DNA of 64,000 nt, from positions 935,544-999,543 of the forward strand of contig BCHH01000015.1 of the NCBI GenBank assembly GCA_001599595.1, written 5' to 3'. This stretch comes from Beverwykella pulmonaria (Eukaryota; Ascomycota; Dothideomycetes; Pleosporales; Melanommataceae). Both the position numbers and the translations under genes were made by a program. Every line of letters begins with the position of its first letter. Within the stretch, counting starts at the first letter, position 1. Shown here in pieces: positions 12,111 through 64,000 of the stretch. The notes beneath the pieces were generated by a model. It was not told the DNA's origin. It was given only the letters and a program-made list of their open reading frames with translations, and searched no databases.

Positions 12111-15100
12111 CGTCCTAGCATCAAGAAGCCTTCTCAGCCCATCAACATCCGATCCTAAATATGAGCGAAAAATCCCCAAAAGATCGCTAACTGCATACCA
12201 AGGCTCAGAATCTAGACTTGGATTCCACCCCACCGCCGGAACTACAGCCGGCCATCGATAGGAAAAGAGTTCCTCCGGGCTCATATCCCTTTCGAAATCG
12301 CCGTATGCGTAGTACTTATAATTGGTTTCGTATGAGAGCCAGGATTTGGGAAGTAGTGGAGCCGCGCCTGCGCGAATTAACATTTCCAGTGCTACAGTGT
12401 ATTCGAAATACGTGTCGTCCGTAAGTTCAGCAAACAAATCTGCCAAAAAGCACAAAAAGAGAGCCCAGACAGTCACAGATCCGTACAGTCCGTTGGGGTC
12501 GGCGCCAAGGTGAAGAACACCACCTAGAAATTCCAAATTCAGTTTTCTGTTGCCAATGCTGCACCCAGATAACCACACAAACCTCGGTCAAAGTATGTAA
12601 TCCAGGATTGGCCTTCCACGCTTCTCTCGAACGTACCCTGAAGTTAAGTGCGTCCTAACATAAGAACTCAGGTCGAAGTCGATTGCCAAGGTAACAAATG
12701 AGCTTTGTTCATGATACCAGCTAGCAATCGAAGGGTCAATGTACCAAACAGACTCCTCGAACCTGTGACGCTGGATAAATTTCTCCAGTATTGGTTGAAT
12801 GGTGGCCGCAGCAATCGCGCAAATTGGTGTGAATTTGTAAGTCGGTCGTGAGAGCGTACTTAGAAGATAGCTTGCAACGGCTACTGCATGTCGCTCACCC
12901 GTTCCGGCTGTCTCCAATGCGACAAATTGGGAAAGCCTGGAACAGAGAAGAAACATTCTTGAGTCATATGGACCGTGCGTGTATTGATATAGCAGAGTTT
13001 GAATCTCAGAGGTTAAAAGAAAGTCACGACACGATCGATGGAGAAAATCGACGGTCAGTCTGAAGACTGGAAGCGAATTGGGGCCTTGGAAGATTCGAGG
13101 ATAGATTGAGGGCTCGAAACTCTGGCCACTTCTAATCTCTTCATCTTGAGCATCCTGCCCTCCTTCTTCGATTGGCTGCGAAGCCACCAGGTCATACGGA
13201 TTTTGATCGACTAGTTGGCTAGGTCGATACTGACACTCAAGTAGGCCCATGCAACGACTGTTCAGTCGTCGCATAGTTGAATCGAGACGAAACTGGAGTC
13301 CTTCCCGATCTGTGAGATCGAGATTTTTATAGTTGTACCGGCCAGTAAGGGCGAAGTCTGGACACCCCTCATCAATAAAGGACAGGTCAATAAGACGAAG
13401 CGGATGCCCCGTCGCGAACTCATGTTCTGTGTAAAGCGCAATCTGTAAAAGTTCAGATGCTTCTTGGCGGTGAAGAGGACTGATAGAATCCATCATTCGT
13501 CTAAAATAGTCGTTCAAATCGCTGGGAATCTCCTCTAATCTCTGCCGCAGTACAATTATCCCATCTCCGTCTCTAAGGCCTTTTAGTAGCTCTCGCACCA
13601 CAAGGCGAACCCACAGAAAAACTCCAGCGGCCTTGTGAGTAATCTCCGAAATGAGACTCTTCGCATTCATCTGGTCGTACCGAAGTAGATATTGAAATCG
13701 TATGTGATTGTGAAGCTCTGTCTCCACGAAGTTGTTGATATCTCCGTGTGTGAGATCTTCAAGTCTCAGCTGCGGGAACTCTCCAAACGCATCTCGAAAG
13801 ATATTCCAGGGCCTGCTAGATAGGCATACTTTAACGTTTCCTAGACTGGCCATATTGATGAGAAGGCTTATTAACTCTTCACGCGCGTCATCGGAACCGT
13901 CGAGCTCGTCAAGTCCGTCGAGAAGTAAGAATACTTTAGCATAACTCCGTACGGATAAGATACATTCTTGTAGGGCGTGCTGTAACTCTGAATTTGTCCA
14001 GTTAATTGGGTGATTTCCAGGTGTTCGTGCAGCCGACCACTTCCTCGGATGGATTACTTGTGGAATCAAATGGGGTTGCTTTTCGAGAAGCTGCACTAAT
14101 AGAGCTCGTAGAAGACCGATCACAGACTTTTGTAACTTGTGTCCAGGGTTCCAAAAGAAGTACTGTGCACTTAGAACTGTTTTGTTCTCCATCCAAGGGA
14201 GCATGTGGTCAGGAATAATGATATTTTGATCTAGAAATTGCATCATCGTCGACTTTCCAGACCCTGGCTTGCCGTAAATCCAATAGATCTTTCTTGACTC
14301 CGTGGGAGAAGATAGCCATGCAATCAGGCTATCCCATTGCTGGTTTCGACCAGGCACAGACTGCAAAATCCATTGACAAGTTTCCTTGTGCGCTTCATGA
14401 ATCTGATGTCTGCGTTCCTGAATTTGGGGAAACCGGAGGCTATCTAAAATTCTTTGCTGAGCATCGACTATTTGATGCTCGTGTTCGAGGGTATCCGAAT
14501 CGTTGAATGGAATGCGGTATATATGAAGGTCTCCCGTTGCCTCCGGTGTCTCAGTCGTCGAAACACGGGATAGGTCAGGCCGGTTGTCCCTTGAAGACTC
14601 TTTTATCTCCTTCTCAAGCCGGATCAACGCCTTGTTCCGTCCCTCCCCATATATGAGAGGCATATGGACATCAAAAAGACCTAGCAGAGAATATGCCGCA
14701 TCCTCTTCGCGTTTCGTCTCGCGTCTTTTTGCCCACGACATCCGCTCATCAACGCTCAACTGATGCAATGCATGTCCTTTAAGAGCTTGGATAGAAATGC
14801 CTGTTGTCTCGGCAATTTCGCGCACCAGTGAATTTTTATCCCCAAGTCGCTCGCCCTCCGAGGAAAAGAATTCAACAGATTTCGGAGCGATAAGCTCTTG
14901 TAGTGTCCAACCCCGAGTAAACCATCTGCTCTTCTGAAATGACAGGTCGTTTCTAGCGATGCCACTGGTTGAAACATCGGATAGGTAAACGTAGCATTTG
15001 ACCGCTTCACGGTACCAGCGGAACATAGAATTGATTGCCTCTGAAAGCTCCGCACTACTTGATTTGTCAATGCAGCAGGTGTCAACCCAAAAGTATTGGA

Positions 15101-15308
15101 GACCGTCCTTTGCGGCTTGCTTTCCGCAGAAGCGAACCTTGCTATAACCAGCTTTGCTCTTGCCTGCACCATCGACTAGATCTTTAAAGGTAAACTCTTC
15201 ATCATCCGCTCCCCAGGTGTGGGAAAGAACAGCATAGTTCGGGGTGTTTTTGCCGACAGACTCGACCAGACTGAATTCGCCGTCATCTCCAAGACGCAAA
15301 AGACGCAT
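12093..15308 (-). pseudogene. HET-NACHT (STAND) protein, C-terminus broken by in-frame stop
   Basis: The main frame 15308-12588 encodes 906 aa without introns. Residues 25-225 form a HET domain: NYAVLSHTWGADDEEFTF, VDTCCIDKSS, RWFTRGWTLQELIAP, and SLLGLFDVHMPLIYGEG. A NACHT NTPase follows, with Walker A GKPGSGKST at 346-354, a Walker B region VFLLLDGLDELDG at about 459-471, and VCLSSRPWNIF as a sensor-like segment. HET-NACHT proteins trigger incompatibility cell death after ligand sensing by the C-terminal region. Translation stops at a TGA (12590-12588) but continues in the same frame for 162 codons to 12093 with coding character, including HLGADPN, an ankyrin-like turn. CGA to TGA is the simplest change. 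The product may still work as a 906-aa truncated form. The ATG at 15308 (MRLLRLGDDGEF) is the usual HET start. Confidence 0.85.
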
Positions 15309-16689
15309 GAGAGGATTGCTTGTGACTCTAGGGAGGGAAATGATGTAAATAAATGTCGGTGAGACGTGCGCACTACCGAACTGGGACTGCGGTAGCTGGT
15401 AGATTATGGAGTAAACAGGTTGGGATGATAGCGGGGCATGAGGCAGTTTCTCAATCTCATGTGGCTGAGTAAGCGTGCTGATAAGTATCGAACGGCAACG
15501 GAACCACTACCGCTTGTAGGGAGGATGGCTAACCCGTAACGACCACCCAACTTTACAACCTAGCAAATATCAGAAGCTGGCACCGTTATGGAATCATGAT
15601 GAACTTCTTAAAGATCCTGGAAAGCTTTCGTCATTCTAAAGCTACAGATCCATGCGACACGGTTTACGCACTCCCAGTCTCGCTTCTAAGGCTTACCAAA
15701 ACGGCATGGCTCCAGATTATTCACAGTCGCGTCAGTTTTCTTGGGTTTAGCCAAGCATGCAGTCCTCAAGGGGGACATCGAGCTGTTGTTAAGAAATGTG
15801 GGAAATTTTCAAACGATCTCTAGATTACCATCTTGGGTGCTTAGCTGGACTTGTGATTCGCGGGGCAGCTACCGAATCATCAACCTTGTTCCTCATTGAT
15901 TTTCCTTAAAAAATTCTGCCATCTCCTCTCTGCTAGACTTACTAAGGTGTTCGTCCACTTTTCAAGATAGAACCATATTCAGTCTAGTCGATTGCAAATT
16001 CGTCTTCTGATAAAGCTGCATGTGAGGCTTACCGCGCCACACTGTGGGCTGTGCAATCAGCCGCATCCTGCCTCGAGCTGAACTAATTCTAACTCTTTGC
16101 AAAAACAAAAGATATAGCAAGAATCTGCTCACATCACTCTTGCAGCGTCTCGCTTTCAGATGTGGATCTTCGGTATAGCTCAGCGTCCTATCTTCCAGTA
16201 TGCTCGCTAGCCTTGAGCAGTCACAGCAGGTTGGTTAACTGGGCTTGAGTAGGCGAAAGCCAGGGAAGGCGTGAGGTATCCACAGCGGGTGGCTGGCCAC
16301 AGACCAGACATCCAGCTAGCTCGCAAGCCTGCTCGGCGACCAGTCAGCGACTAGTCAACGGCGTCGTGAACACCATCCCTTCCTAAACTCGCAAGGCAGA
16401 CGTACAAGAGAAGATGTGGAAGATCAGGGAAGTCTGCGGTATTTGGTCATACGGGCTCTTACTATTGGTTAGGCACCCGTCCTCCGCCACTTCGCCTGAT
16501 GCTCCGCCCCGATCTGTGGCTCCACCTCCAAGAAGCTGAGCATTCAGAGTCTCTCGAGGCGGAATAAGGGTGATTTGACAAGGCTGTGACGGGTCAATCA
16601 AAAAGTCGGCGCGTTCCAGCCTGAAAAATATGAATACAATATTTCGCAGAGCTTCAGCTTCTCTAGTTCATCATAGCGCACTTCAAACA
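15309..16689. other. Intergenic between divergent HET-NACHT and vWA genes
   Basis: About 1.4 kb lies between head-to-head genes. Besides the HET fragment described separately, no ORF is convincing. The segment holds both promoters. An in-frame ATG at 16630 could extend the vWA protein by 20 residues. Confidence 0.4.
15593..15700 (+). pseudogene. HET-domain fragment
   Basis: The plus frame reads FLKILESFRHSKATDPCDTV followed by YAL. KATDPRDKVYALLGL is the highly conserved central motif of HET domains, so this looks like a surviving piece of a second HET gene. The Arg of DPRD is Cys here (CGN to TGC, a C-to-T change) and coding similarity fades within about 100 bp on each side. It lies in the opposite orientation to the neighbouring HET-NACHT gene. 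Confidence 0.5.
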
Positions 16690-48950: not shown

Positions 48951-49402
48951 AATGTCGGTGGACCTCAGCGCGCGCTAACAGTCCGTTCATGGGTGGAAGG
49001 TGTACTCTTCCTGGCAGAGGCACTCGGTGAGTTCCGTAGGCGCTGTGGATATCATACTGTGTAGGATTCATTGAGCCGTTTCGAGATTTTTGGTGGTGGT
49101 GGACTACGTGGGGGGCCAATCAAGCCGTGCGGAATTTGTTTTTCTACGGTCTGGGTCTAACGGTAGGCTCAATTCTTTTATTAATATATTAATTCGGTGG
49201 GGGTGACTGGTCTATCGAAGCCCTATTGAACCTAATCCGGCGACCACCCTTAAGCCACAAGCCACATAGGCGTACTTGTTCCAAGGCCTCAAATAATCGC
49301 ATGACCTGAGTTTCTCAGCCGCACCCAAAGGCTTTCTGCTGTTGGGTGCCCCGTACACCGTAACATGATTGCACCTACTTGGTATCATCCTCGCGACGGA
49401 CG
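48951..49402. other. Upstream region of the ankyrin gene
   Basis: About 450 bp between the Tc1 remnant and the ankyrin-repeat gene. No coding signal is seen. It contains the promoter of the gene starting at 49403. Confidence 0.4.
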
Positions 49403-51210
49403 ATGGATCCGCGATCGACGGACCCGGCGGCATCATCCCTCCTCTTCTACTCAAACATTGCAAAAGCGATAAAAGATGTGACTGAAGGATATAATGCAGC
49501 ACCGACGACATTATCCATCAGTGCTGAATGCCTGGCCATTAGCGGGGCATTGATGGACATCCAGTTACTGCTCACCCAACCTCATGCCCTCTTCTCACGT
49601 ATCATCTCACAGAGTCAGCTTGCCGAAGCTTTAAAGAGCGCGCAGAATTGCTGCAACTTTACGACTTCTAGGCTAGTGGAAGAAGTGGGAAAATGTATGC
49701 GAAATCAAACAAGCACGGGAAAAGGCCCTGGCACCTGGAGCATGACGCATTCATACGACGAAGTACTGATAAAAGGACTCCTGCAGCAAACGCAGAGGCA
49801 GTTAACAGATGTCAGCTTGCTGATTGCGGCAGCACAAAGGTAATCAAAATCTCCAAGTCTCAAGCTTCGTACACTTGAAGCAATGCTGATTGAAGCAATG
49901 CTGATAACATTAGAAATTCTACTGTGGAAGTTCGGCAGCTCCTCCAAAATGACACCTTTATTGGCCACTTCGACAAAAGGGATTCAATAGATACCCCGAC
50001 TTCCAGCCAGCCTGGTGGATACGGTCAACCTCATTGGGAACAACTTTACGCCGACACGAAGTCCATCTATACTCAAACCTCCGACGGTGTATCTGTCTAC
50101 AACTTCCACACTGGTCAGGGTGAACCATATAGTGAACTTGACTGTGACACCGCGTCGGTGATATCCAAGTCGCAGTTCACACCATCACTATCTGACAAAA
50201 CCAAGAAGGTACCGCGTGCGCAGATGGGATCCTTATTTTTCAAACTTTTCAAATCCAACACCGAGTTACACCGTGCCGCAAAGAAAGGAGATGCGAAGAA
50301 GATAAAGGCGCTCTTAGATTTGGGTGTGGATGTCAACTACGAGGGTTCGTCTGGATGTACGGCGCTGCACCTGGCAACCGACTGCGGCCACGAAACAGTA
50401 GTTCGAGTGCTTCTGGACAATGATGCGGATCCTTCGGTAAAGTCGAGTGAGGGACGAACTCCGCTACATAGTGCAGCTCGCACCGGTCACACAGCAATTG
50501 TCCAGCTGCTACTAGAGAAAGGTGTTGATGTCCAAGCCAAGGATCCCTCCGGGTCTACTCCGCTTCACATAGCAGCTTACAACGGGCAAGAGTCCGTGGT
50601 CCAGATTTTGCTCAAGAAACACCCCGTCGTCGAGGTACCGGGACCTTCTGGATTTACGGCACTGCATGTTGCGGCTTTCAACGGACAATCGGCAGTAGTA
50701 CGTCAGCTGGTTGAAATGGGGGCGGACCTCGAAGCACGAAGTGACACGGGACGGACAGCGCTACAGCTGGCAGCGGAAAAAGGGCACGAGGCTGTGGTGC
50801 GGCACCTGTTGCAGCATGGAGCCAACGTCATGACGAAGGACAGTATGGGGCGAACGGCGCTACAGGGCGCGGTCTCAAACCAGCACGGAGTGGTGGCACA
50901 ACTGCTATTGGACAACTTAGTGGTACCAGAGGCCCACTCACATCGGCCGCCCCAACGAGGTTCTGGGTCAGGACCATTATATGGATTAAATGCAGTCAAT
51001 CCAGACCTTAAGATGGCAGAATTGAATGCGCCTAATCCGCCCACGTGGCCGCGACAGGTCTCGAATGTACCGATATATGAGCTTCCCGCTTCATCGTTTC
51101 AGTTGGCGGAGTTGCCAGCACATGATAAGAACGTAGGGCTAATGACTCCGACGTCAACAACTCAACGGGCGGCTCTACTATCACATCAAAGAAGAGCAGG
51201 AGGAAGGTGA
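49403..51210 (+). CDS. Ankyrin-repeat protein with helical N-terminal domain
   Basis: Exons 49403-49839 and 49914-51210 (74-nt intron, phase 2) give 577 aa. The N-terminal ~145 residues are helical and resemble the N-domain found in front of fungal STAND and ankyrin proteins: SLLFYSNIAKAIKDVTEGYN and LTQPHALFSRIISQSQLAEA. A Ser/Thr-rich linker follows. From about residue 255 there are seven ankyrin repeats, starting TELHRAAKKGDAKKIKALLD and including TPLHSAARTGHTAIVQLLLE and TALQLAAEKGHEAVVRHLLQ. The tail is Pro-rich and disordered. No NTPase or enzyme domain is present, so it is probably a binding or adaptor protein. The start ATG gives MDPRSTDPAASS; the frame upstream reaches only a TTG. 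Several repeats are close to consensus and similar to each other, as in recently expanded arrays. Confidence 0.88.
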
Positions 51211-52355: not shown

Positions 52356-52763
52356 TTAAAGGCATTTTCTCTCTTTTACTCCCAATATTTCCAATTCCCG
52401 AGGGACAACCTTCAAGCCCGTCACAGTCTCCTTTCTCCTCTCCATGTCAAAGTGAACTTGGCATGACACGAATACGAACGGTCTCTTGGGTGTACTCTTG
52501 AATAGGAGAGAAGCAGAGAATCGTGCAAGTGAGTCGGTCGCGGAAATTAGAGTGAACGACTTCCCGCTTCCGCTGTACCCGTCAGTCATGACACAGATAG
52601 AGGCACCTCCCAGAATATATCTGGTCAAGGGCTTGAAGAAGTTGTTTACATCGTCGTTCCTCTTATCTTGTTCCCAGACAAATTCGAAAGGGAGTTTGCG
52701 GGGATGGCTTGGGTATACCAAGAGCGCAGACTTTCTCCTCGAATAATTCACTTCATTCGACAT
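52356..52763 (-). CDS. Kinesin-motor-like P-loop protein, short
   Basis: The intact 135-aa frame carries FVWEQDKRNDDVNNFFKPLT, LGGASICVMTDGYSGSGKSF and TLI. This follows the kinesin motor layout: an F.VF....Q..V.....PL helix, then G.N..I.AYGQTGSGKTFTM. The P-loop GYSGSGKS is at 62-69, with Thr replaced by Ser at the last position. A normal motor domain is about 330 aa, so only the nucleotide-binding half is here. The switch I/II motifs (NxxSSRSH, DLAGSE) are absent. It may be a truncated gene, one exon of a longer gene, or one of the short kinesin-like P-loop proteins seen in fungi. The ATG at 52763 opens MSNEVNYSRRKSALL. No continuation was found downstream. Confidence 0.5.
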   Translation of the reverse strand: MSNEVNYSRRKSALLVYPSHPRKLPFEFVWEQDKRNDDVNNFFKPLTRYILGGASICVMTDGYSGSGKSFTLISATDSLARFSASLLFKSTPKRPFVFVSCQVHFDMERRKETVTGLKVVPRELEILGVKERKCL

Positions 52764-53611: not shown

Positions 53612-56032
53612 TTAACTTATAACAGCGTGCACGCGACATTTTTTGAACTCTTTAACGTCTCGCGACAGACGTCTCCCAAGCCCGCGCGGAATACCCAAGT
53701 GATCCCAATCCGAGTTTGTCATATGTTCCACGACTTCTAAGTCGTCCTCCTCTTTCTGTAGTGCAGCTAGCGCTTCGTCGAGGCTCGACCTCCTCGATGG
53801 CGCCTTGTTACTCTTGTACCATTCGATGTATTCGACGAGGAGTTTGTCAGGGTCCTCCATAATAAATTCAGAATACTGTGTGTTTGTCGAATTGAGATCG
53901 TCGCTCGGATTCTCTGGGCCTGGTTTGATCACTCCAGGTAACCGAACCGTACGGATTTTAATATCATGAGTTCTCCATAACCCAGTGGTAGTTCTCGCAA
54001 GACGCGATGGAGATGTCAGCGTTTCCAACAGTGGTTCCAGATCAGCTCCACGAGTATCATCCTGTATGCGTCGGGGATTTCCCTGCGCGATGCTTCCCAG
54101 CTCCAGGCACTTAAACGAAGTCGATTGGAGCGTCACAAATGCCTTCAAGACGTCGACTAGTTCAGATTCACCATCTTCGATAAAAGACTGTGGAATCTTC
54201 ATCTGGAACTGTAGTGCTTGACTCTGGCCCGCAGGTACCTCCTCGGAATCTCCCGCTCCGTAAGGGTGGATCTGCGAAATGCCCCAGTCCTGCTTGAGAT
54301 TGAGAACAGTCAAGTAGACTGGCTCCGATCCTCGGTTTGTGAACAAAATGTTGACGTATTCATGATCATGAACCTCGTACGAACCATCGGGTCGTCGCGG
54401 GTTTCTTGATTGCTGTTTTGTGGATGGTGATCGTACCTGGGGCATTGGCGGTGCTTCGACCGGCTTCTTACTCGTGCTGGTGATCTGGAAAGTAGTCGGA
54501 CCAAAAGATGAATATCGGGCAAGTCTCTCGACCCTTCGGTATTTGATCACATGGTTAATGTAGCTACTGATGATCATTGTTGAATTCGGGTCCGATATAG
54601 GAACAGCTGGTAGGTTCGGAAATCGTCGATTGGCACAGTCCCTGAGCTCGTACTGAAGCAGGTCGTTGATGGTCACTAGGAATGGCGCAAGGTCTTGTTC
54701 AGATTCTGACAGTTGCCATGGAAGTGGCTCGCCGCCTTTTTTTCTGACAAAATCTTTGATCTGCTTCAGGCCTAGATCATGCTGGAGCTTGTTGATTGTT
54801 GCTGTGTTAGGAACGAGTCGCACTTGGACGCATTCGTGGGGACTCGTCTTCGTCAGAACAGCTTTCAACCCAATAGCTGTCGACCACAGGTCGTGTCCTC
54901 TAGATGAAATCAGGTCGGCTATTGCGGCAAGATCGGACGTCTCTCGTACTACTACTGTCATCAAACGGCCTTTGCCATCTTCCTTACTTGAATGCACCTC
55001 GTACTCTTCCCCCACTGCCACCCCATGCAGATACCCTGCGTTCAAGGTAACAGTTCTCGAGCGTTGGTCAATATCGGTAATCCGGACTGTGTGGCTATAA
55101 TGGCCTTTCCTAAGTCCGAAGAACACTCGATCCGGGTCTCCTTGGATGACTGGCGTTTGCTGGACAAATACACTGCGAACCAACGTACAAACCTGGCTGT
55201 GCAACATTTCGTGCGTGATGTCGCCTGTGCTATCTCTCAGTGCTTCTATCAGGTAGTATGTAAACGCACCGTTGATTATTCCATTTTTGAGGCCGACTTC
55301 GTGAGCACTCTCATAGACACAGCACGCAGCGAGGTAGGTATATCCCTTTGGATCCAATAACCAGGTTTGACGCCCAGTAGCTCCTCGTATATTGCCGCTG
55401 TTACCGTTACTGATATCGGGCAGGTCTGTCTTGTCGGTTGGTAGAACGGTGAAATCTACTTCTCCGATCCCGCGCGTTTTTGCCCCACCGTCGGAGCGCA
55501 AGACGCTCCCAGAATGGCAACTGTCGACAGTAACCGTCACAACCAACTTCTTCTCGACCATTTTCTGCAGGAGAAACGCAAGTTCGACATCTCTGATGTA
55601 TCGCCCACCTGGCACCTCAATGTTACTGGGCACTAAGGCCTCGTCGTACCCATTGTCCCCTTTCAAATCTTCAAATATCGTCCGTACTCGTCCTCCATGT
55701 CCAGAATAGTGAATGTACACCAGATCCCCAGGCCGAGCGGATCGTGTGATTTGTTCGAAGGCAGAAAGGATCATCTCGCGAGTCACACCTTTCTTTTTGC
55801 TAGGAAGAGGCACAGCCGAATCACTGCCCAGGTTTGGAGCAGTCAATATCCACATGTGCGCTGTGGGGACGTTGACACCTTGAAGAAATTGCACCACCAG
55901 CCGGATATCGTTGACGCAGCCGCCTAATGATGGATAGTGGATTGTACTTCCGTGTTCGTTCTTTCTGAGATCACCGCGGAGATATCGGTCGATTCCGATG
56001 AGCAAAGCCCATTTGCTGTGTGTATATGACAT
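53612..56032 (-). CDS. Caspase-fold (peptidase C14/metacaspase-like) protease with SAM-like C-terminus
   Basis: The single-exon frame encodes 806 aa. The N-terminal domain begins KWALLIGIDRYL, the first beta strand of the caspase p20 fold. The catalytic dyad is intact: His112 in YIHYSGHGGR and Cys172 in VTVDSCHSG. DNGYDEALVP at 126-135 matches the metacaspase-like substrate-pocket loop. The domain continues to YLAACCVYESAHEVGLKNG and INGAFTYYLIEALR. After about residue 310 come a beta-rich region (VRITDIDQRSRTVTLNAGYL) and a domain with VNILFTNRGSEPVYLTVLNL and WGISQIHPYG, resembling the DUF4384-type domain that follows caspase domains in some proteins. The last ~80 residues (LVEYIEWY, NSDWDHLGIPRGLGRRLSRD) look like a SAM domain. 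It is probably a cytosolic cell-death or regulatory protease. It is head to head with the TPR-CHAT gene. Confidence 0.88.
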   Translation of the reverse strand: MSYTHSKWALLIGIDRYLRGDLRKNEHGSTIHYPSLGGCVNDIRLVVQFLQGVNVPTAHMWILTAPNLGSDSAVPLPSKKKGVTREMILSAFEQITRSARPGDLVYIHYSGHGGRVRTIFEDLKGDNGYDEALVPSNIEVPGGRYIRDVELAFLLQKMVEKKLVVTVTVDSCHSGSVLRSDGGAKTRGIGEVDFTVLPTDKTDLPDISNGNSGNIRGATGRQTWLLDPKGYTYLAACCVYESAHEVGLKNGIINGAFTYYLIEALRDSTGDITHEMLHSQVCTLVRSVFVQQTPVIQGDPDRVFFGLRKGHYSHTVRITDIDQRSRTVTLNAGYLHGVAVGEEYEVHSSKEDGKGRLMTVVVRETSDLAAIADLISSRGHDLWSTAIGLKAVLTKTSPHECVQVRLVPNTATINKLQHDLGLKQIKDFVRKKGGEPLPWQLSESEQDLAPFLVTINDLLQYELRDCANRRFPNLPAVPISDPNSTMIISSYINHVIKYRRVERLARYSSFGPTTFQITSTSKKPVEAPPMPQVRSPSTKQQSRNPRRPDGSYEVHDHEYVNILFTNRGSEPVYLTVLNLKQDWGISQIHPYGAGDSEEVPAGQSQALQFQMKIPQSFIEDGESELVDVLKAFVTLQSTSFKCLELGSIAQGNPRRIQDDTRGADLEPLLETLTSPSRLARTTTGLWRTHDIKIRTVRLPGVIKPGPENPSDDLNSTNTQYSEFIMEDPDKLLVEYIEWYKSNKAPSRRSSLDEALAALQKEEDDLEVVEHMTNSDWDHLGIPRGLGRRLSRDVKEFKKCRVHAVIS

Positions 56033-56379
56033 GATTGTGCGCGGCTAGAAAGACGAACAGCCAGGGAGACGCCAAATCTGAAATAAATTGTCCTATGGAA
56101 AGATTTGGCAAGGTAGGAGATAGAATCATCGATTGAATCATCTCACATTTTAAAGGTTTAATCATGTTCCAATACATGACGTGAGTTAGGAAACACTGGT
56201 GGTGCGATTGTGGGAGTGGTGTGAGCGAGGAGGTCACCACCTATCAGAAATGCAACCACTACCTATGGTCTGTCCAAAAGCAATTATAAAATCGCCAGAC
56301 CATAGTCAGGCCATACACCACAACTTATCACCATACCTCAACCCCATTTCTCCCAAAAAAAACACCAGCATTAACCAAA
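56033..56379. promoter_or_regulatory. Shared promoter of the caspase-like and TPR-CHAT genes
   Basis: Only 347 bp separate the two start codons. A TATAAA (56285-56290) about 90 bp before the CHAT ATG is bracketed by the perfect 10-bp inverted repeat CTATGGTCTG (56263-56272) and CAGACCATAG (56296-56305). This operator-like structure could bind a dimeric factor over the TATA box. The CHAT leader just before the ATG is A/C-rich. Shared control of both genes is inferred. Confidence 0.55.
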
Positions 56380-59300
56380 ATGGAAACTTTCATCGTAGAC
56401 CCTGGAATCGCAAGTCTCATCAGGGACATGAGTCGGGAAGAGCTTGAAGCCTTCGCTGCTCGCCACGATGGCCCAATTCTGGACGAAGACATCGAAATAT
56501 CCGTGTACGCGTTTCTCCTCATGTTTATCCATTTTGGCTCCGAGGATCATCGAGCCAAAGCCTTGCACCTTACAACCTGCTGGCTAAATGCTACAAAGGA
56601 AGATGATCCGGACCGACAACGCCGATGTAGACTCCAGAAAGTCATAGAATCGAGCAAGGTTACAGGGAAGAAAGACATTGGATTAGAGGCAGCTATCTGG
56701 GCACAAAAGCTTCAAGCACAGTACAAAAAGGAGGAGAGGTCGGACACCATTGACCGCGCCATCCAATATGCCATGACTAGTATCGCTTTCACCGTTCCAC
56801 CACATCCTGATCGACCATCCCGTTTGAATCTCCTTGCCAATCTTCACGGCCAACGCTATAAGCTCAACCCAAATCAGAATCTAGAAGACTTGAGCGCCGC
56901 TCTCTGTTATCTAGGAATGGCAGCCGATGAGCCTTTCTATGATGCCGACCCAGACAAATGGATGTGGCTTTCAAATATGTCAACATGGCTGCTCGAGCGC
57001 TGGGAGAAGGGAGAATTAACCACTGACCTCGAAGAAGCCATTAGACGCGCTGAAAAAGGCCTAAAAATCTCGCCCGAGGCTTGTAGGAATGATTGCCGGA
57101 TTGCGCTTGTCAATGGGCTAAATGAAAGATACAAACTGCAAGGAAGGCTCGAAGACCTCAACAGAGTCATTGAATTGGACGAAGAGGCCATTGCACGGAG
57201 ATCAAATGTAGGACTCAAAAGAGCGACATATGTTGCCGATCTAGCTCTATCTCTCGCAAAGAGATACGAAATTATTGGCTCGTCAGCAGATGTCGATCGG
57301 GCTTTGGAATTGGCCGAAGAGGCGTTGGAGGATACACCAATGGGGGAACCTGGTCAAAGAGCTAGTATAATGAGCGCTTTGGGTGTGAATCACTTGCTGA
57401 GATACTCTCGACGCCATCTGAAGAAAGACCTTGAAGAAGCATTGAAATGCTCCAAGCAGGCCGTAGATATGACACCGGACTCTCAAAGTCCAACCCTCGC
57501 TTTTCGGCTGGTGCATCTGGGGATGTGTTATATCCAACTCAATTACGTCATCGAGTCTTCCAACGACATTAGCCTAGCTATCCTCAACATTGAGAAGGCA
57601 CTGGATCTTTCTACCAAGAGCACGGCCGAAAAGAGTTCGTGGCTAGAAACCCTCTCGCTGTGTTATTCGCAACGTTTCAAATTGAAAAAGGAGAAACCAG
57701 ACATTGACAAAGCAGTCCAGTTAGCCACAGAAGCTGTTGATGCACTTCATATCACTGAAAACGCAAAGGATATGCTACCACAATCTCTCCGTGTGAATCT
57801 CAGCACTCTCTTCTCGCTGGGAAAAGTCTTAACCGAGAGATACGAAGAATACCAAGATATCATAGACAAGGAACATGCAATAGACGCTTACATGAAGGCA
57901 TGGAAGTGTTCCGATGGTCCGTCGGTGATAAGAATTAAGTGTGCAGCACAAGCCGCCATGGCGTTTGCTACTGAAGAGAGATGGGACATGGCCAACAGTT
58001 TGTTGCGCGACGCTGTATCCCTACTAAGCAACGTCAACCCTAGAATGTTGAGACCGAGCGATATGCAATATACACTGGCTGGATGTGAAGGCTTGGCCTC
58101 AATGGCGGCGGCAGTTGCACTGAACGCCCGCTCTGATCCATATCAAGCACTCAAGCTGCTAGAGATAGGACGCGGTATCATTGCAGGCACGATAATGGAT
58201 ATGAGAATTGATCTATCAAAGCTGATGCAGCTACACCCAGACTTAGGGCAGAAGTACTCCGATTTAAGATGGAAGCTGGTAGACTTTCCGGCCGCCTTGA
58301 AGAACGTCTCCTTCATCAATCTTTCGTCACAAAACACCTCCGAGGCACTCTTACGTGATACCAGAGACGCAGAATTCAAGTTCAAGAAGCTTATTGAGAC
58401 GATCCAGGCCCACAAAGGCTTCGAGAAGTTCTTACTCCCTCCGGACCGGGAGGAAATAGCCCGTGCGGGAGACATGGGTCCAGTCGTCACAATCAACGTC
58501 AGTCCATATCGATGTGATGCCTTCATTGTCGCCAAGGGGGCCATTTCTGCCCTTAGACTTCCCAATCTCAATATCACCGAACTTAGAGCACACCTTCAAG
58601 TCCGGAATACCATGCCAAGCTCTCCACCATTCGGCATCAAGAACATGAAGCTAGCAATGGAGTGGCTGTGGGATGTTGCTGCAGACCCCATTCTATCCCA
58701 CCTCGGATACAAGGATACCATATTTACCAAAAATCCTCCACATATTTGGTGGGTACTCACTGGCCTGCTCAATCGGTTTCCATTCCATGCTGCTGGATAC
58801 CACGACGCAGGTTCTAAAAATACAGTTCTCGATAGAGTCATGTCCTCCTACGCTTCGAGCATTCGGTCTTTGATATTCAAACGCCAAAATCAAATATGTA
58901 GACTCGGTACAAGTAGTGACGATAAGCCTGGCACCGCTGTACTCGTGGCCCTGAGCCAGACACCAGAACAACGACCATTGCCGTTCGTTTCTGCCGAAGT
59001 GGTGGTGGTAGACGAGATATTACGTGAAATGGGGCTCAATATCGTGAGGCCCCCAACAAAGTGGAAGTACCGTGTACTGCAGAGCATGCGGGACTGCACA
59101 GTCTTCCATTTCGCAGGCCACGGAAAACCTGATTCATTTGACCCAGCAAGAAGTTGCTTGCTATTGGAAGACTGGAGAACGGACCCTCTAACAGTTGACG
59201 ACATACGGGACAACTGGGTCCATGGACCAGCAGCATTGCTCGACCAAAAAAGCCAACATTCGAGAGGCAAGGAGCAGCACCCTGAGGCGTTTAAGCCAGG

Positions 59301-59730
59301 CTCAACACCGTTCATGGCCTATCTGTCTGCATGCTCGTCAGGATTAAGCAAGGTCGATGAGCTATCGGATGAGGGAATACATCCCGCCAGCGCCATGCAG
59401 CTTGCAGGATTCCGACATGTCATAGCTTCTCTTTGGGATGTGTCAGACAGATACTGCGTTGACGTGGCACGGAAAGTTTACGAGACTTTGGGAAGTGAGG
59501 GTTTCACAGATGAATCTGTATGCCATGCTCTTTATAGGGCCGTCAAAACACTAAGAGATGAATGTGTTCGTAGCAAGAGCAATGCTCAATCACTCCCGAA
59601 CCAAGTAACCGCTGCATGTTCGGATGACGCTTTGCAAGAGAGAGATGCCATACCAGTAGGATACAAGACCAAAGAGGCGGAGACAGAGCTAGATGTGGCA
59701 TGGATGCCGTTTGCGCATTTTGGTGTCTAA
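56380..59730 (+). CDS. TPR-CHAT protease (separase/caspase-clan)
   Basis: One uninterrupted exon encodes 1116 aa. A helical head (1-60) precedes an alpha-solenoid of TPR-like pairs to about residue 600, with repeated D..RAL.L.EEA...P-type helices (DLEEAIRRAEKGLKIS, DLNRVIELDEEAIARR, DVDRALELAEEALEDT, DLEEALKCSKQAVDMT, DIDKAVQLATEAVDAL). Residues ~700-1116 are a CHAT domain. Its conserved His is H914 in VFHFAGHGKPD and its Cys is C985 in MAYLSACSSGLSK. PASAMQLAGFRHVIASLWDV and the terminal WMPFAHFGV complete the family pattern. CHAT proteases belong to the caspase/separase clan; the TPR part usually senses or binds a partner. In bacteria TPR-CHAT proteins act in immunity, for example with gRAMP. 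Here the partner may be the divergent caspase-fold protein. The gene shows no damage. Confidence 0.9.
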   Translation: METFIVDPGIASLIRDMSREELEAFAARHDGPILDEDIEISVYAFLLMFIHFGSEDHRAKALHLTTCWLNATKEDDPDRQRRCRLQKVIESSKVTGKKDIGLEAAIWAQKLQAQYKKEERSDTIDRAIQYAMTSIAFTVPPHPDRPSRLNLLANLHGQRYKLNPNQNLEDLSAALCYLGMAADEPFYDADPDKWMWLSNMSTWLLERWEKGELTTDLEEAIRRAEKGLKISPEACRNDCRIALVNGLNERYKLQGRLEDLNRVIELDEEAIARRSNVGLKRATYVADLALSLAKRYEIIGSSADVDRALELAEEALEDTPMGEPGQRASIMSALGVNHLLRYSRRHLKKDLEEALKCSKQAVDMTPDSQSPTLAFRLVHLGMCYIQLNYVIESSNDISLAILNIEKALDLSTKSTAEKSSWLETLSLCYSQRFKLKKEKPDIDKAVQLATEAVDALHITENAKDMLPQSLRVNLSTLFSLGKVLTERYEEYQDIIDKEHAIDAYMKAWKCSDGPSVIRIKCAAQAAMAFATEERWDMANSLLRDAVSLLSNVNPRMLRPSDMQYTLAGCEGLASMAAAVALNARSDPYQALKLLEIGRGIIAGTIMDMRIDLSKLMQLHPDLGQKYSDLRWKLVDFPAALKNVSFINLSSQNTSEALLRDTRDAEFKFKKLIETIQAHKGFEKFLLPPDREEIARAGDMGPVVTINVSPYRCDAFIVAKGAISALRLPNLNITELRAHLQVRNTMPSSPPFGIKNMKLAMEWLWDVAADPILSHLGYKDTIFTKNPPHIWWVLTGLLNRFPFHAAGYHDAGSKNTVLDRVMSSYASSIRSLIFKRQNQICRLGTSSDDKPGTAVLVALSQTPEQRPLPFVSAEVVVVDEILREMGLNIVRPPTKWKYRVLQSMRDCTVFHFAGHGKPDSFDPARSCLLLEDWRTDPLTVDDIRDNWVHGPAALLDQKSQHSRGKEQHPEAFKPGSTPFMAYLSACSSGLSKVDELSDEGIHPASAMQLAGFRHVIASLWDVSDRYCVDVARKVYETLGSEGFTDESVCHALYRAVKTLRDECVRSKSNAQSLPNQVTAACSDDALQERDAIPVGYKTKEAETELDVAWMPFAHFGV

Positions 59731-60431
59731 CAGTAGCATGAGCATGTGCAGTTGTTGTACGTTACAACGACGAGTTCCTTTTTTCCCACCATGCTGGGCA
59801 GGATAGCAATGCGACCGTCGAGGAAGCTGAGTCGTGGGACTGGCGGGATGGACAAGTGGGGTAGTGAAGGAGGGCATTATTTATATTCCGCAAGTATTTG
59901 ATATCCAACGAGGTGACAATAGATGGTTTCAGAGAGCTTCACTAATATAAAAACCAAAACTGGGGATGTAACGCGTGGTGAGTGTGCGGAGGGCAACCAA
60001 ACTGGGCGGAGCACGAAACAGGAAGGCCAGAAGAGACGCGCAACGCGAAAAGGAGGCAACAGAGTTGCGGGGTCAGGTGAAAAAGGTGCAAAGAAGCTGG
60101 CGCGACGTCACGTGAAGAGGTTTGAGGGGACGGACACTCTAAGGAGCCTTTCGTCTCTTCGTTCCCCGAGGCACACGTTATATCAGACACCTTTCTGAGA
60201 GTACAAATGTGACGGTATCAACCTGCTACGCCGCTTCCAATGTTATTTTTCCGCCATCACTCTTATGGGTCTAGCGCCTAAGGTCAACAATGTACCCCGC
60301 CCAATCAAGTCACGATTGCTGAGATGACCAACAGACTAACTTTTGAGCTCAATATACCTACCACCGTGCCACCTAGGTGCCTTCCAGCGTCTTCAACTTT
60401 CTCCCCCTTCCACCTAGCTGTATTCTGGACG
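59731..60431. other. Intergenic between TPR-CHAT gene and P450 remnant
   Basis: About 700 bp with no supported gene. Open frames on both strands at 59920-60200 are mutually overlapping, basic in composition and without motifs. The promoter of the P450 remnant should lie here. Confidence 0.35.
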
Positions 60432-60847
60432 ATGATGGAGTCCTCCACATTCGTGGCATCCGTGGCAGCGGTAGGCTTTGCCTATTTTGGGATGAAACTC
60501 ATCCAACATCGTCACGCCTACAAAGACCTGGTGAGTACTTTGCTATTTTCATGCTACGGTAGCACAGCAGAGCCTAGCTGCCCAGTGTACTTTTCATCTG
60601 ACTCGCTAAATAGCCAAAACCGCCATACTCCTTCTTATGGGGACACCTCAAACTGATGGGCGATAGATTTGCCCTTTTTCCAAATAATCCCCACTTCCAA
60701 GTCGCCGTCACGACGTTGTCGCAGAAGTACAACCTCCCTGGCATCTGGTATCTCGATCTCTGGCCTCTTGGGCCCCAACAGATGATCATTACGGACCCTG
60801 ACTTGGCCTTACATATGACCGTAGTGAAAAACCACCCAAAGCAGTGA
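60432..60847 (+). pseudogene. Cytochrome P450, truncated N-terminus
   Basis: Exons 60432-60530 and 60614-60847 encode the first ~110 residues of a fungal P450. There is an N-terminal membrane anchor (TFVASVAAVGFAYFGMKLIQ) and, after an 83-nt GT-AG intron, the proline-rich hinge PKPPYSFLWGHLKLMGDRF. Then come YNLPGIWYLDLWPLGPQQMI and ITDPDLALHMTVVKNHPK, matching the first beta sheet region. The frame ends at once at TGA 60845 where the sequence changes to AT-rich repeat-like DNA beginning CAGTGACATCGGG. The I-helix, ExxR and heme-Cys regions are missing, so the gene is a 5' remnant cut by an insertion or rearrangement. Confidence 0.8.
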
Positions 60848-61214
60848 CATCGGGAATTCGGTTAAATTTTCCGAACCATGTACTAACCATGGTTAACCAC
60901 AGGTTACCAGACAAACCATACAAACCATACAAATTATAAAAAGTTTAATATTTAATATAATGCCTTTTTGTTATAAACATGTCTCAAATCATTTAGCCTT
61001 GGACGCCGGTCTTGGGGTCCATTGGCTCGGAAGGCAATACTGGAGAAGAGTACGACTTCGGAGAAGTATTACTCCAGCATACTTGTGCCCGGAGGTGACC
61101 ACCTTATCACTTGAGCCTCACTTGAACCTCCTAGGTTTTATTGTGCTATCACCCTGCCTTACCACCTGACGTCACCTTTCGGCTCTCCTTCTCATCCTCT
61201 CCCATCCAGGGTAC
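60842..61214. other. Repeat-like sequence at the P450 breakpoint
   Basis: The segment begins CAGTGACATCGGGAATTCGG and contains the inverted pair TTCGG...CCGAA and several AACCATG/ACCATAC repeats. Ends starting CAGTG are common in hAT transposons. No partner end is visible in the window, so the call is tentative. Confidence 0.35.
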
Positions 61215-61710: not shown

Positions 61711-64000
61711 TTAGCCCAGCTCTAAAGTATCTGCCTCTGCCTCCTGCACAATCCTATTAATTAGCTCTGCAAACTTGCCCCTCTCCATTAATGCGTCCTC
61801 AACCTCTACACCCTTCATGTGTAATGAGTATATGTGGACCTTTTTCTTTTGCCCAATTCTGTTCTGGCGGAACCTCTGTTGTTTGCTTAGTTGCTGGTTA
61901 ATTAATGGCTCTATCTCAACCATCTGAGCAGAGCGCTGGAGGTTCAGACCTGTCCCCATTGTCTTTGATGTAGCCACAAACATAGAGGGGAAGCAGCCTT
62001 GGTGAACAAACACTGACTCACCCTCGCCCGTGGTCTGCTTTTCAGCTTCGACAAACTTGGCAATATTTTCGCGTCGTACTTTCGTTGACAGCCATGACCC
62101 ATGCTGATACCACTCCTCATTTTCAAATTCCCTCCTTAGCCATCGTTCTAGGATCATCACCACGAACCCGAACTCTGACACGATGACCAGCTTTGACGTC
62201 AACTCGCCCGCCTTTTCTTCTCTTTTCCGGTCCTCTACCAGGTTCTTAATTATCTTTCTTAGCGCATCAAGTTTCGGGGCGTCCTTGATAATGCACTCAT
62301 AGTGTTCATCAATGAAGTCTGTGACAAACTGTCCAGCTCCATCCTGATCCTCATCGTAGAGCATCAATTCACTATCAGCTTCAGTCTGTTTTCGTGGTCG
62401 CAAGTCTTCAAACCACCTCATTTCGCAGCACTTGTCCTGCGTCACATTGTGCCCCTTCTGCATGAACTCATTCCAGATATCTGCTAGTCCTGGAAACGTT
62501 GGAAGAATCCTCGCAATGTGGCTGCCTGAGATGATGTTCCGCGCGGTGTTCCGAGCATCCTTGTCCACCCGCTTATTCCTCCGAATAGCGTCGTTAATCG
62601 CCCTCGCTGAGTCCTTCGCCTTNATTTTCAGGGTTGCTAGTCTTTCATTGCAAGCCCTTAATTGCTTTTCGAGTGGAATTACCTCTACTGGTATTAACTC
62701 CATGCCAGGCAGCTTGACAATTGGATCTCCGTTACCCATCCTAGTGTCGTCTGTGCGGCGGATACATACTCTTGAGAAGTAAAGGCTCCATTCTGTTGCT
62801 AAGAACCTAAGCGAATCTTGATTAAAGCTGATGCCTTTCTTCTTTAAGTTCTCAAGCTCCCTAAACCGTGTTGAAAAATTCTGCAGGCTGTNCATGTCTA
62901 TTGCGTTCTTCTTGTCCAGTATGTCATCAACAGGAAGGAAATCAACAGACTCTCCATCTTTAATCATCCCCTCCACAGTCCATCTAAGCTGGCGCTGGAG
63001 CTCAGAAAGCGCAAACCACCAGGGAGTGAGCTCCTTTGGGTTGATTCCAATAGGAGTCCCAGAGAGCATGATTAGNAGGGGAGGCACGCCCTTGGTGTAC
63101 ATTAGGGCTTCACCTGCTGTGTGTGGGTTGTCCCAAGGTAGCAATGTCCAGATTATGTGTTGGAATGTGCGCGTATCGCCTGTTTTCTCAAGATGGGCTT
63201 CGTCAATGAGTATTCCAGCAAACCTCATTGCACTAAAGCCAGCAACCTGGGATGGGCCTCGTACCCACCCAGCTAGATTACCCTTTAGTCTTACTGCAGA
63301 GAAAACTGGAAATTCGGTAGTTGTTGTNCCTAAGAACGCATCGTTGATCTTCTTTGCGTAATTTCGCACGCATCCCTGCGTGCTGAGGATTATCGTGCAG
63401 TGCTTTGGTGTAGTAGTGAGCCATTCTCCAGTCTCTGGAATGCATGCTAGGTCGCGGGGATTNATCTCCATACTGTTTGTGCCACCATACCCAAGTGTCC
63501 ACACCTCCCTATTTGCCACATGCTGGAGGCTGTCATTATGCTCAATTACAATTTGCAGGCGTTGCGCTGGGAATGTATTGAGGATGTCGTCAACCCATTG
63601 TGGTATAACTGATGTGACTTCACAGATAACCATCCATGGACCTTCTCTTGCAACCCATTTTGACGCAAGTGAATCATGCTCACATGCGCAGCGGAAAGGG
63701 GTGTGCTGATTTGTAGATGGGCATTTCAGTCCAGGTTGGGCCTCAACAANATGCTCTGGCCCGTTAAAATCTTGATNATTGTGCCTTTTTGCTTTTGCAT
63801 ATGCGGCCATCTCTTCTCGCTGTTCAAGCACAACGCCATTAAACCATGCGATCATTACCGACTCGACTGATTTCCCTAGCCCTTGAAGATCGGCAAGCCA
63901 GCCACCGCATGTTGTCCGTGTCCGCTCGCAGGCCCACAACAGCAGGACAAGTTGGTGCAGAAACAATTTGCGCTTAAAGCCTCGGACAGGGATTGGGTCG
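61711..64000 (-). CDS. SNF2-family helicase/ATPase, 5' end beyond the window
   Basis: The minus-strand frame is open from the window edge to TAA at 61711, at least 760 residues. The helicase signatures are in order: HQLVLLLWACERTRTTCGGW with the P-loop LADLQGLGKSVESV, the DEAH box GILIDEAHLEKTGDTR, the motif III region LIMLSGTPIGINPKELTPWW, and the C-terminal RecA lobe with VIVSEFGFVVMILERWL, TSKTMGTGLNLQRS and QRFRQNRIGQKKKVHIYSL (motifs V and VI). It is therefore a DNA-translocating or chromatin-remodelling-type ATPase. Seven ambiguous bases fall inside the frame, yet no stop is seen. The methionine-like start inside the window is a TTG, so the true start is upstream of the edge. Being next to tandem repeats and ambiguous bases suggests a multicopy, perhaps transposon-carried, gene. 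Confidence 0.85.
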   Translation of the reverse strand, partial: DPIPVRGFKRKLFLHQLVLLLWACERTRTTCGGWLADLQGLGKSVESVMIAWFNGVVLEQREEMAAYAKAKRHNXQDFNGPEHXVEAQPGLKCPSTNQHTPFRCACEHDSLASKWVAREGPWMVICEVTSVIPQWVDDILNTFPAQRLQIVIEHNDSLQHVANREVWTLGYGGTNSMEXNPRDLACIPETGEWLTTTPKHCTIILSTQGCVRNYAKKINDAFLXTTTTEFPVFSAVRLKGNLAGWVRGPSQVAGFSAMRFAGILIDEAHLEKTGDTRTFQHIIWTLLPWDNPHTAGEALMYTKGVPPXLIMLSGTPIGINPKELTPWWFALSELQRQLRWTVEGMIKDGESVDFLPVDDILDKKNAIDMXSLQNFSTRFRELENLKKKGISFNQDSLRFLATEWSLYFSRVCIRRTDDTRMGNGDPIVKLPGMELIPVEVIPLEKQLRACNERLATLKXKAKDSARAINDAIRRNKRVDKDARNTARNIISGSHIARILPTFPGLADIWNEFMQKGHNVTQDKCCEMRWFEDLRPRKQTEADSELMLYDEDQDGAGQFVTDFIDEHYECIIKDAPKLDALRKIIKNLVEDRKREEKAGELTSKLVIVSEFGFVVMILERWLRREFENEEWYQHGSWLSTKVRRENIAKFVEAEKQTTGEGESVFVHQGCFPSMFVATSKTMGTGLNLQRSAQMVEIEPLINQQLSKQQRFRQNRIGQKKKVHIYSLHMKGVEVEDALMERGKFAELINRIVQEAEADTLELG

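What the first reader, a model, noticed from the sequence alone, without database searches (positions are those of the whole stretch)
53612..59730. Head-to-head caspase-fold and TPR-CHAT protease pair: candidate two-protease cell-death or immunity module
Two proteases of the same clan, both with intact His/Cys dyads (H112/C172 and H914/C985), are divergently transcribed from a 347-bp promoter. The surroundings hold HET/STAND remnants, an ankyrin adaptor and a kinesin-like P-loop ORF. Known: TPR-CHAT proteases act in bacterial immunity and caspase-fold proteins in regulated death. Inferred: one protease senses through TPRs and cleaves or activates the other, as in a cascade. I do not know of a described fungal caspase-CHAT gene pair of this type.
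Basis: partly seen in the sequence, partly recalled or inferred. Interest (0 to 1): 0.88.

Follow-up and report, generated by a model that had tools for sequence, protein, structure and literature searches.

The report
Paired fungal caspase and CHAT proteases
This fungal genome repeatedly carries two caspase-type protease genes side by side, one with a sensor-like repeat arm, and relatives of the same caspase in bacteria often sit beside sensor genes, which suggests an old plug-in cell-death or defence module.

Summary
Window 53612-56032 (-) is an 806-aa metacaspase-type C14 protease, 56380-59730 (+) a 1116-aa TPR-CHAT protease; 347 bp separate the start codons, and both His/Cys dyads are invariant in the homologues aligned (78 and 46 rows). 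The linkage is not chance: 7 of 9 C14 genes in this 45.6-Mb genome lie within 8 kb of one of 12 CHAT matches, in three orientations; the two canonical metacaspases do not. The C14 protein belongs to a 700-aa family shared with bacteria. There it lies beside a CHAT ORF in 9 of 39 loci (0.22 expected in the 37 genomes searched) and beside an nSTAND1 gene in 13 of 39 (12 of 30 testable; 0.17 expected). Two bacterial neighbours fuse C14 and CHAT domains, one weakly. I read this as an executioner caspase with interchangeable sensors, CHAT being the fungal one. A cascade (CHAT activates C14) is likeliest, with precedent in SAVED-CHAT systems, but is inferred. Against: partner distances do not co-vary significantly, fungal and bacterial partner CHATs do not group, half of the bacterial partner CHATs lacked a recognisable motif, and linkage in other fungi was untestable. 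Nine literature searches gave no description of the pair.

The parts
53612..56032 (-). C14 (metacaspase-type) protease gene, 806 aa, single open frame
   Evidence: Pfam Peptidase_C14 55.9 bits; PADLOC 'caspase' PDLC02987 E 2.8e-27
55103..56032 (-). Caspase domain (residues 1-310); catalytic H112 (55697-55699) and C172 (55517-55519)
53933..55087 (-). C-terminal, largely beta region (residues 316-700) shared with the bacterial 700-aa family; function unknown
   Evidence: alignments, model; weak FlgT_C match in 9 of 15 bacterial members, best E 0.0012
53612..53860 (-). C-terminal helical tail (about residues 725-806), seen in the window type (also P0001-P0003); single copy in the genome
   Evidence: (mean pLDDT 86-91 per block over residues 731-800); no Pfam or PDB sequence match
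56033..56379 (.). 347-bp divergent intergenic stretch
56380..59730 (+). TPR-CHAT protease gene, 1116 aa, single open frame
   Evidence: CHAT 97.1 bits
56677..58239 (+). TPR-like helical solenoid (about residues 100-620), presumed sensor arm
   Evidence: model secondary structure; TPR_MalT E 1.8e-4, below its cut-off
58657..59565 (+). CHAT protease domain (Pfam residues 760-1062); catalytic H914 (59119-59121) and C985 (59332-59334)

Best explanation
The pair is one functional module. The C14 protein is an executioner-type caspase-fold protease of a 700-aa family shared by fungi and bacteria. Its genetic partner is a sensor: in bacteria either a STAND protein, mostly with WD40 repeats (NLR-like) and at times with its own caspase domain, or a TPR-CHAT protein; at the linked loci of this fungus it is a CHAT protein homologous to the window's. 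Most likely mechanism (inferred): the TPR arm binds a trigger, the CHAT domain becomes active and cleaves or recruits the C14 protein, which then cuts further targets and kills or arrests the cell, as immunity or allorecognition. Shown: domains, intact dyads, folds, recurrent linkage, fusions. Inferred: direction of the cascade, trigger, targets, cell death.
For: Dyads invariant in both alignments; both motifs present in all 7 C14-linked CHATs of this genome. Linkage: 7 of 9 C14 genes within 8 kb of a CHAT match, plus a C14 copy in pieces beside a further CHAT (C5c); orientation varies, so proximity rather than a shared promoter is kept. The C4 and C6 pairs are sisters in both trees, the C6 CHAT being a fragment. 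Bacteria: CHAT ORF within 700 bp of the 700-aa C14 in 9 of 39 loci (8 lineages, L057 and L075 being near-identical), 0.22 expected over 37 genomes; in the genome of L038 only one CHAT match was found in 3.5 Mb. nSTAND1 gene within 1.1 kb in 13 of 39 loci, and in 2 of 3 plasmid loci, the third being the same place as L040; 12 of 30 testable loci against 0.17 expected. C14-CHAT fusions in L045 (CHAT 210.8 bits) and L074 (CHAT 27.0 bits, cut-off 24). [quoted passage not shown] a TPR-bearing CHAT protease activates a fungal gasdermin (PMC12881547); one hetB allele of A. fumigatus codes a CHAT protein (PMC11138114).
Against: Distances between partners do not co-vary significantly (n=6, r 0.22, P 0.24; n=5, r 0.62, P 0.10). 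Bacterial partner CHATs do not group with fungal ones, and none of the 3 actinobacterial CHAT loci fetched as nearest to the fungal type had a C14 nearby, so common ancestry of the pair is not shown. A crude motif scan found both catalytic motifs in 4 of 8 bacterial partner CHATs (L045, L054, L057, L060) and one or none in L037, L038, L070, L074. Five of 12 CHAT loci in this genome have no C14 in the 9.5 kb read. The distance limits were chosen after seeing the loci. No expression, binding or cleavage data.
Confidence: 0.55

Rival explanations
1. The two proteases are linked but act side by side or in the reverse order: C14 processes CHAT, or both are independent effectors under one trigger.
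For: C14 is the common element and partners vary, so C14 might equally be a shared activator; in L045 and L074 both domains sit in one chain, which fixes no order.
Against: The variable partners carry repeat or STAND parts that are sensors in characterised systems (recalled), which puts them upstream.
Confidence: 0.2
2. The pair is the protease half of a membrane-executioner system: the fungal C14 acts on a DUF6594 membrane protein, as other proteases act on gasdermins.
For: DUF6594 matches lie beside C14 at C9 and C5a; DUF6594 is fused to C14 in P0278, P0306 and P0321. Its membrane nature is judged by eye from hydrophobic stretches.
Against: No DUF6594 match lies near the window, C2a, C4, C6 or C5c pairs; the family is large here (49 matches), so two neighbours alone are weak, and both neighbours read with stops inside, which may be introns or decay.
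Confidence: 0.15
3. Linkage is a by-product of segmental duplication of one ancestral pair or of clustering in fast-evolving accessory regions, with no joint function.
For: Paralogous pairs in one genome are not independent; the window pair ends about 4.3 kb from a contig end.
Against: The linked paralogues are far apart in sequence (caspase domains 17-39% identical, CHAT domains 30-54%) yet stay close through changes of orientation; bacterial adjacency with different CHAT and STAND partners is independent of fungal duplications.
Confidence: 0.1

Closest known systems
SAVED-CHAT protease cascade of type III-B CRISPR (Steens et al. 2024, not held; cited in PMC11229360 and PMC11417357, passages)
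   Same: A CHAT protease described as giving immunity through a cascade of proteolysis; that the next enzyme is a caspase is recalled, not read here.
   Different: No SAVED domain in the Pfam scan of the window CHAT; TPR arm instead; eukaryotic host.
Craspase TPR-CHAT (Csx29)
   Same: Best-ranked solved fold for the window CHAT model.
   Different: Craspase TPR-CHAT works with Cas7-11 and crRNA (PMC9935389 and PMC11089037, abstracts in listing); here the partner gene is a C14 protease. 11-13% identity.
Fungal CHAT-gasdermin two-gene clusters (PMC12881547, PMC10197012, PMC10989679, passages)
   Same: CHAT protease gene beside a dedicated target gene in fungi.
   Different: The neighbour here is a second protease, not a recognised gasdermin.
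Bacterial EACC1-caspase and STAND/caspase conflict systems (PMC7159879, passages)
   Same: Caspase-fold protease genes tied to STAND or repeat parts.
   Different: The EACC1-type caspase model is far below its cut-off (16 of 140 bits); the word CHAT does not occur in that paper's main text.
Metacaspases (yeast Yca1, plant MCA4 and MCA9)
   Same: Fold and dyad.
   Different: Extra C-terminal region of about 380 residues and, in the window type, a helical tail; linked to CHAT, unlike the two canonical metacaspases of this genome.

Membership tests
Peptidase C14 / metacaspase-type protease | Pfam PF00656 over its cut-off | tested here: met
   55.9 bits, cut-off 21.4
Peptidase C14 / metacaspase-type protease | His/Cys dyad and caspase fold | tested here: met
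Peptidase C14 / metacaspase-type protease | Acidic S1 pocket for Arg/Lys (positions recalled from metacaspase structures) | tested here: inconclusive
   D42 in 77 of 78 (one gap) and D170 in 78 of 78 rows; pocket role is recalled, specificity not measured
TPR-CHAT protease | CHAT domain PF12770 over cut-off with His/Cys dyad | tested here: met
   97.1 bits, cut-off 24; H914 and C985 in 46 of 46 rows
TPR-CHAT protease | TPR solenoid N-terminal to CHAT | tested here: met
   Helical repeats in model, Foldseek to TPR-CHAT; single Pfam TPR models stay below their cut-offs
SAVED-CHAT cascade | SAVED sensor domain on the CHAT protein | tested here: not met
   Pfam scan at E 0.1 shows only CHAT and TPR-type matches
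SAVED-CHAT cascade | CHAT cleaves and activates a neighbouring caspase | not testable with these tools
   needs biochemistry
Fungal CHAT-gasdermin cluster | Gasdermin gene within 10 kb | tested here: inconclusive
   Short ORFs beside the pair were listed; besides the pair, three window ORFs and seven ORFs or parts were scanned with Pfam, none named gasdermin; no fungal gasdermin model was searched and introns were not modelled
EACC1-associated caspase | NF047832 over its cut-off | tested here: not met
   16 bits, cut-off 140
Bacterial 700-aa caspase family (alignment A1) | Homology over the full length, not only the caspase domain | tested here: met
   Hits named as bacterial: 32-35% identity over 79-87% of the query

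The most novel reading that the evidence does not exclude
A single executioner-caspase family is wired, across bacteria and fungi, to exchangeable sensors: NLR-like STAND proteins in one branch and TPR-CHAT proteases in another. The fungal pair would then be a eukaryotic two-protease death cascade in which a CHAT protease takes the place of the NLR, with type-specific add-ons (DUF6594 protein, a 65-aa protein, or the helical tail of the window type).
Probability: 0.4. Interest if true: 0.85.

Novelty: new variant of a known kind. Interest (0 to 1): 0.72.

Why it matters
Fungi have metacaspases but, to my knowledge (recalled), no accepted caspase cascade. A recurrent CHAT/C14 pair, with bacterial relatives in which the same caspase is often beside STAND sensors, offers a concrete candidate and makes the question whether fungal regulated death uses protease cascades directly testable in tractable species: Trichoderma and Podospora didyma are among those with C9-type C14 proteins.

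Tried and rejected
Co-evolution test by distance matrices: not significant. Transfer of the pair as a unit from bacteria: not supported; fungal CHATs lie apart from the bacterial partner CHATs, and 0 of 3 actinobacterial CHAT loci (all that passed E 1e-80 in 396 genomes) had a C14 nearby, one of them on a 6.4-kb contig. Origin of the window-type C14: it groups with bacteria rather than with C9-type fungal C14, but at SH-aLRT 80 only, with C2a on a long branch; left open. A shared contig between CHAT and C14 hits of other fungi: I compared the listed contig lengths by eye and saw none equal; these lists are capped, so this is no test. SAM-like nature of the C-terminal tail: suspected from sequence, not confirmed. 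DUF4384 for the C-terminal region: suspected from recall, not found. Extra gene shared between the window locus and others: none found. Sampling more bacterial genomes: the 700-aa family was found in 2 of 297 genomes of one phylum and 1 of 301 of another at E 1e-60, the query's own genome included each time, too rare for a second test. Phages: one weak match only. Controls: the CHAT search rang in 1 of 14 control genomes, the nSTAND1 search in 13 of 14 (over cut-off in 3), so nSTAND1 counts at E 0.001 include looser relatives, which raises the chance expectation. Statistics use distance limits chosen after seeing the loci and treat loci as independent.
Full report
What is there. The window lies in a 45.6-Mb genome of 31 contigs, at the end of contig C15; hits point to a filamentous ascomycete. 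The ORF 53612-56032 (-) codes an 806-aa protein with a Peptidase_C14 domain; 56380-59730 (+) codes a 1116-aa protein with a C-terminal CHAT domain. The start codons are 347 bp apart. H112 and C172 are invariant in 78 aligned C14 proteins, H914 and C985 in 46 aligned CHAT proteins. AlphaFold models show a metacaspase fold plus a largely beta C-terminal region of about 380 residues and a helical tail in the first, and a helical solenoid plus CHAT in the second; the nearest solved structures are metacaspases and Csx29/TPR-CHAT, with separase also high in the list.

Linkage in this genome. A search for CHAT gave 12 matches, for C14 10 matches, which I take as 9 genes (two exon rows on C1 as one). 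Seven of the 9 C14 genes lie within 8 kb of a CHAT match: C15 (window), C2, C4, C6 (two C14 genes), C9 and C5. A further C14 copy, in pieces over several frames, sits head-to-head with another CHAT on C5 (locus C5c). So 7 of 12 CHAT loci have a C14; the other five (C3, C2b, C5b, C2c, C5d) show none in the 9.5 kb read. The two unlinked C14 genes are on C1 and resemble canonical metacaspases. Five of the seven loci are head-to-head (C15, C2a, C4, C6, C5c), one tandem (C9), one tail-to-tail (C5a). Under random placement P is about 8e-16, but paralogues share history. The 7 C14-linked CHATs all show both motifs, though the C6 CHAT is split into separate frames. In trees, the C4 and C6 pairs are sisters for both proteins, yet distances as a whole do not correlate significantly.

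The family beyond this genome. The window C14 has relatives at 46-50% (Cosmosporella, Fusarium nematophilum and one of unnamed origin) that share its C-terminal tail, and many bacterial relatives; those named as bacterial in the list of 120 show 32-35% identity over 79-87% of its length. The C9-type C14 occurs widely in Pezizomycotina: Mytilinidion (71%), Zopfia, Monosporascus, Cenococcum, Podospora didyma, Xylaria, Trichoderma, Beauveria, Alternaria and Lasallia are among the best 120 hits. The window CHAT has listed relatives at 32% or less, in Fusarium, Nannizzia, basidiomycetes and Streptomyces among others; of the 75 compared with the CHATs of this genome, none has the window CHAT as its best match, most having C9 or C5c. 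Whether these fungi keep the pair linked could not be tested.

Bacterial neighbourhoods. A scan of bacterial and archaeal genomes with 15 members of the 700-aa family (A1) gave 47 loci, 39 of which I count as the full family (L037-L075; the 8 others match less and were not used). L075 and L076-L083 differ in this: L075 holds only the C-terminal half at a contig end. With a CHAT profile built from about 78 aligned segments, a CHAT ORF lies within 700 bp in 9 of 39 (L037, L038, L045, L054, L057, L060, L070, L074, L075) and within 10 kb in 12 of 39. Pfam agrees for the six of these nine that I scanned (27.0 to 239.9 bits; L037 and L074 are weak); L057, L070 and L075 rest on my profile alone. CHAT counts for the 37 genomes searched (38 handles given, L041 not held, L051 left out as the same genome as L039) put the chance expectation at 0.22. 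In L045 the neighbour is a 2184-aa protein with a C14-family part over model positions 3-700, TPRs, CHAT and an AAA/STAND part; in L074 the neighbour joins C14 stretches, a weak CHAT and TPR. A crude motif scan found both catalytic motifs in 4 of 8 of these partner CHATs.

Sensors are exchangeable. I scanned neighbouring genes with Pfam at 24 of the 39 loci. An nSTAND1 gene, mostly with WD40 repeats, lies within 1.1 kb at L041, L046, L047, L049, L050, L051, L053, L055, L058, L059, L061 and L063; L048, not scanned, is added because a matching nSTAND1 place was found in its genome. That is 13 of 39. Expected by chance among 30 testable loci: 0.17, observed 12. The nSTAND1 protein carries its own Pfam C14 domain at L041, L050, L051 and L063 and at the plasmid loci L088 and L089; by my C14 profile also at L046, L048 and L055; none was seen at L047, L049 and L053. 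Other arrangements among the scanned: a further C14 gene (L043, L073), a C14-kinase-TPR fusion (L064), a C25/CHAT-like neighbour below the CHAT cut-off (L071), no match (L072). The remaining unscanned loci stay open.

Add-ons in fungi. Beside C9-type C14 genes there are two more elements. DUF6594 matches, with stops inside that may be introns or decay, lie next to C14 at C9 and C5a, and DUF6594 is fused C-terminal to C14 in Lasiosphaeria miniovina (two proteins) and Periconia. A protein of about 65 aa gave exactly three matches in the genome, each within about 530 bp of a C9-type C14 (C9, C6, C5a). The window pair has neither; its C14 has the helical tail instead.

Mechanism. Shown: domains, dyads, folds, recurrent linkage, fusions, exchange of partners in bacteria. 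Inferred: TPR-CHAT as sensor, C14 as executioner, proteolytic relay from CHAT to C14, cell death or defence as outcome. Precedents, read as passages: SAVED-CHAT immunity through a proteolytic cascade (PMC11229360), CHAT activation of a fungal gasdermin and clustering of CHAT with gasdermin genes (PMC12881547; PMC10197012; PMC10989679), a CHAT protein coded by one hetB allele of A. fumigatus (PMC11138114), C14 and CHAT proteases near bacterial gasdermins (PMC9612521).

Novelty. Nine paper searches and the passages looked at gave no description of a fungal C14/TPR-CHAT pair nor of the bacterial 700-aa caspase with TPR-CHAT; one cyanobacterial orthocaspase with a CHAT domain is counted in PMC8283722. 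The library holds open-licence papers only and no paper was read whole. I rate it a new variant of a known kind: protease-bearing sensors paired with a dedicated target are known, this partner combination I did not find.

Noticed in passing
G000:C9:1615000-1615827 and C5:791776-792606; P0278, P0306, P0321: DUF6594 matches beside C9-type C14 genes and DUF6594 fused to C14 in two genera: candidate target of the protease; no paper naming DUF6594 or PF20237 in the library.
   Followed up: partly
G000:C9:1616811-1617035, C6:1847305-1847496, C5:790995-791180: A small protein of about 65 aa with exactly three matches in the genome, each next to a C9-type C14 gene.
   Followed up: partly
window 49364-51210: Ankyrin-repeat gene (49894-51210) with an open frame before it (49364-49843) that has no Pfam match.
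   Followed up: partly
window 52356-52763: Part of a kinesin motor domain (profile 40-116 of 327), probably a broken gene.
   Followed up: no
window 60282-60850: Short frames that look by eye like the start of a cytochrome P450 gene, probably a remnant; not confirmed by Pfam.
   Followed up: no
window 61711-63855: Open frame with ambiguous bases near the contig end that looks helicase-like by eye; no Pfam match.
   Followed up: no
window 12588-15506: 972-aa open frame with HET, NACHT-type and DUF7791 domains, apparently intact.
   Followed up: partly
P0022, P0023, P0043 and others: 700-aa-type C14 proteins of about 1150 aa that also carry a metallophosphatase domain (PF00149).
   Followed up: no
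P0011 and P0334 (Madurella fahalii): A window-type and a C9-type C14 protein on contigs of one length, 26 locus tags apart.
   Followed up: no
window 22000-44000: Lower G+C (0.41-0.46), partly strong AT skew and few long frames, perhaps a repeat-rich block.
   Followed up: no
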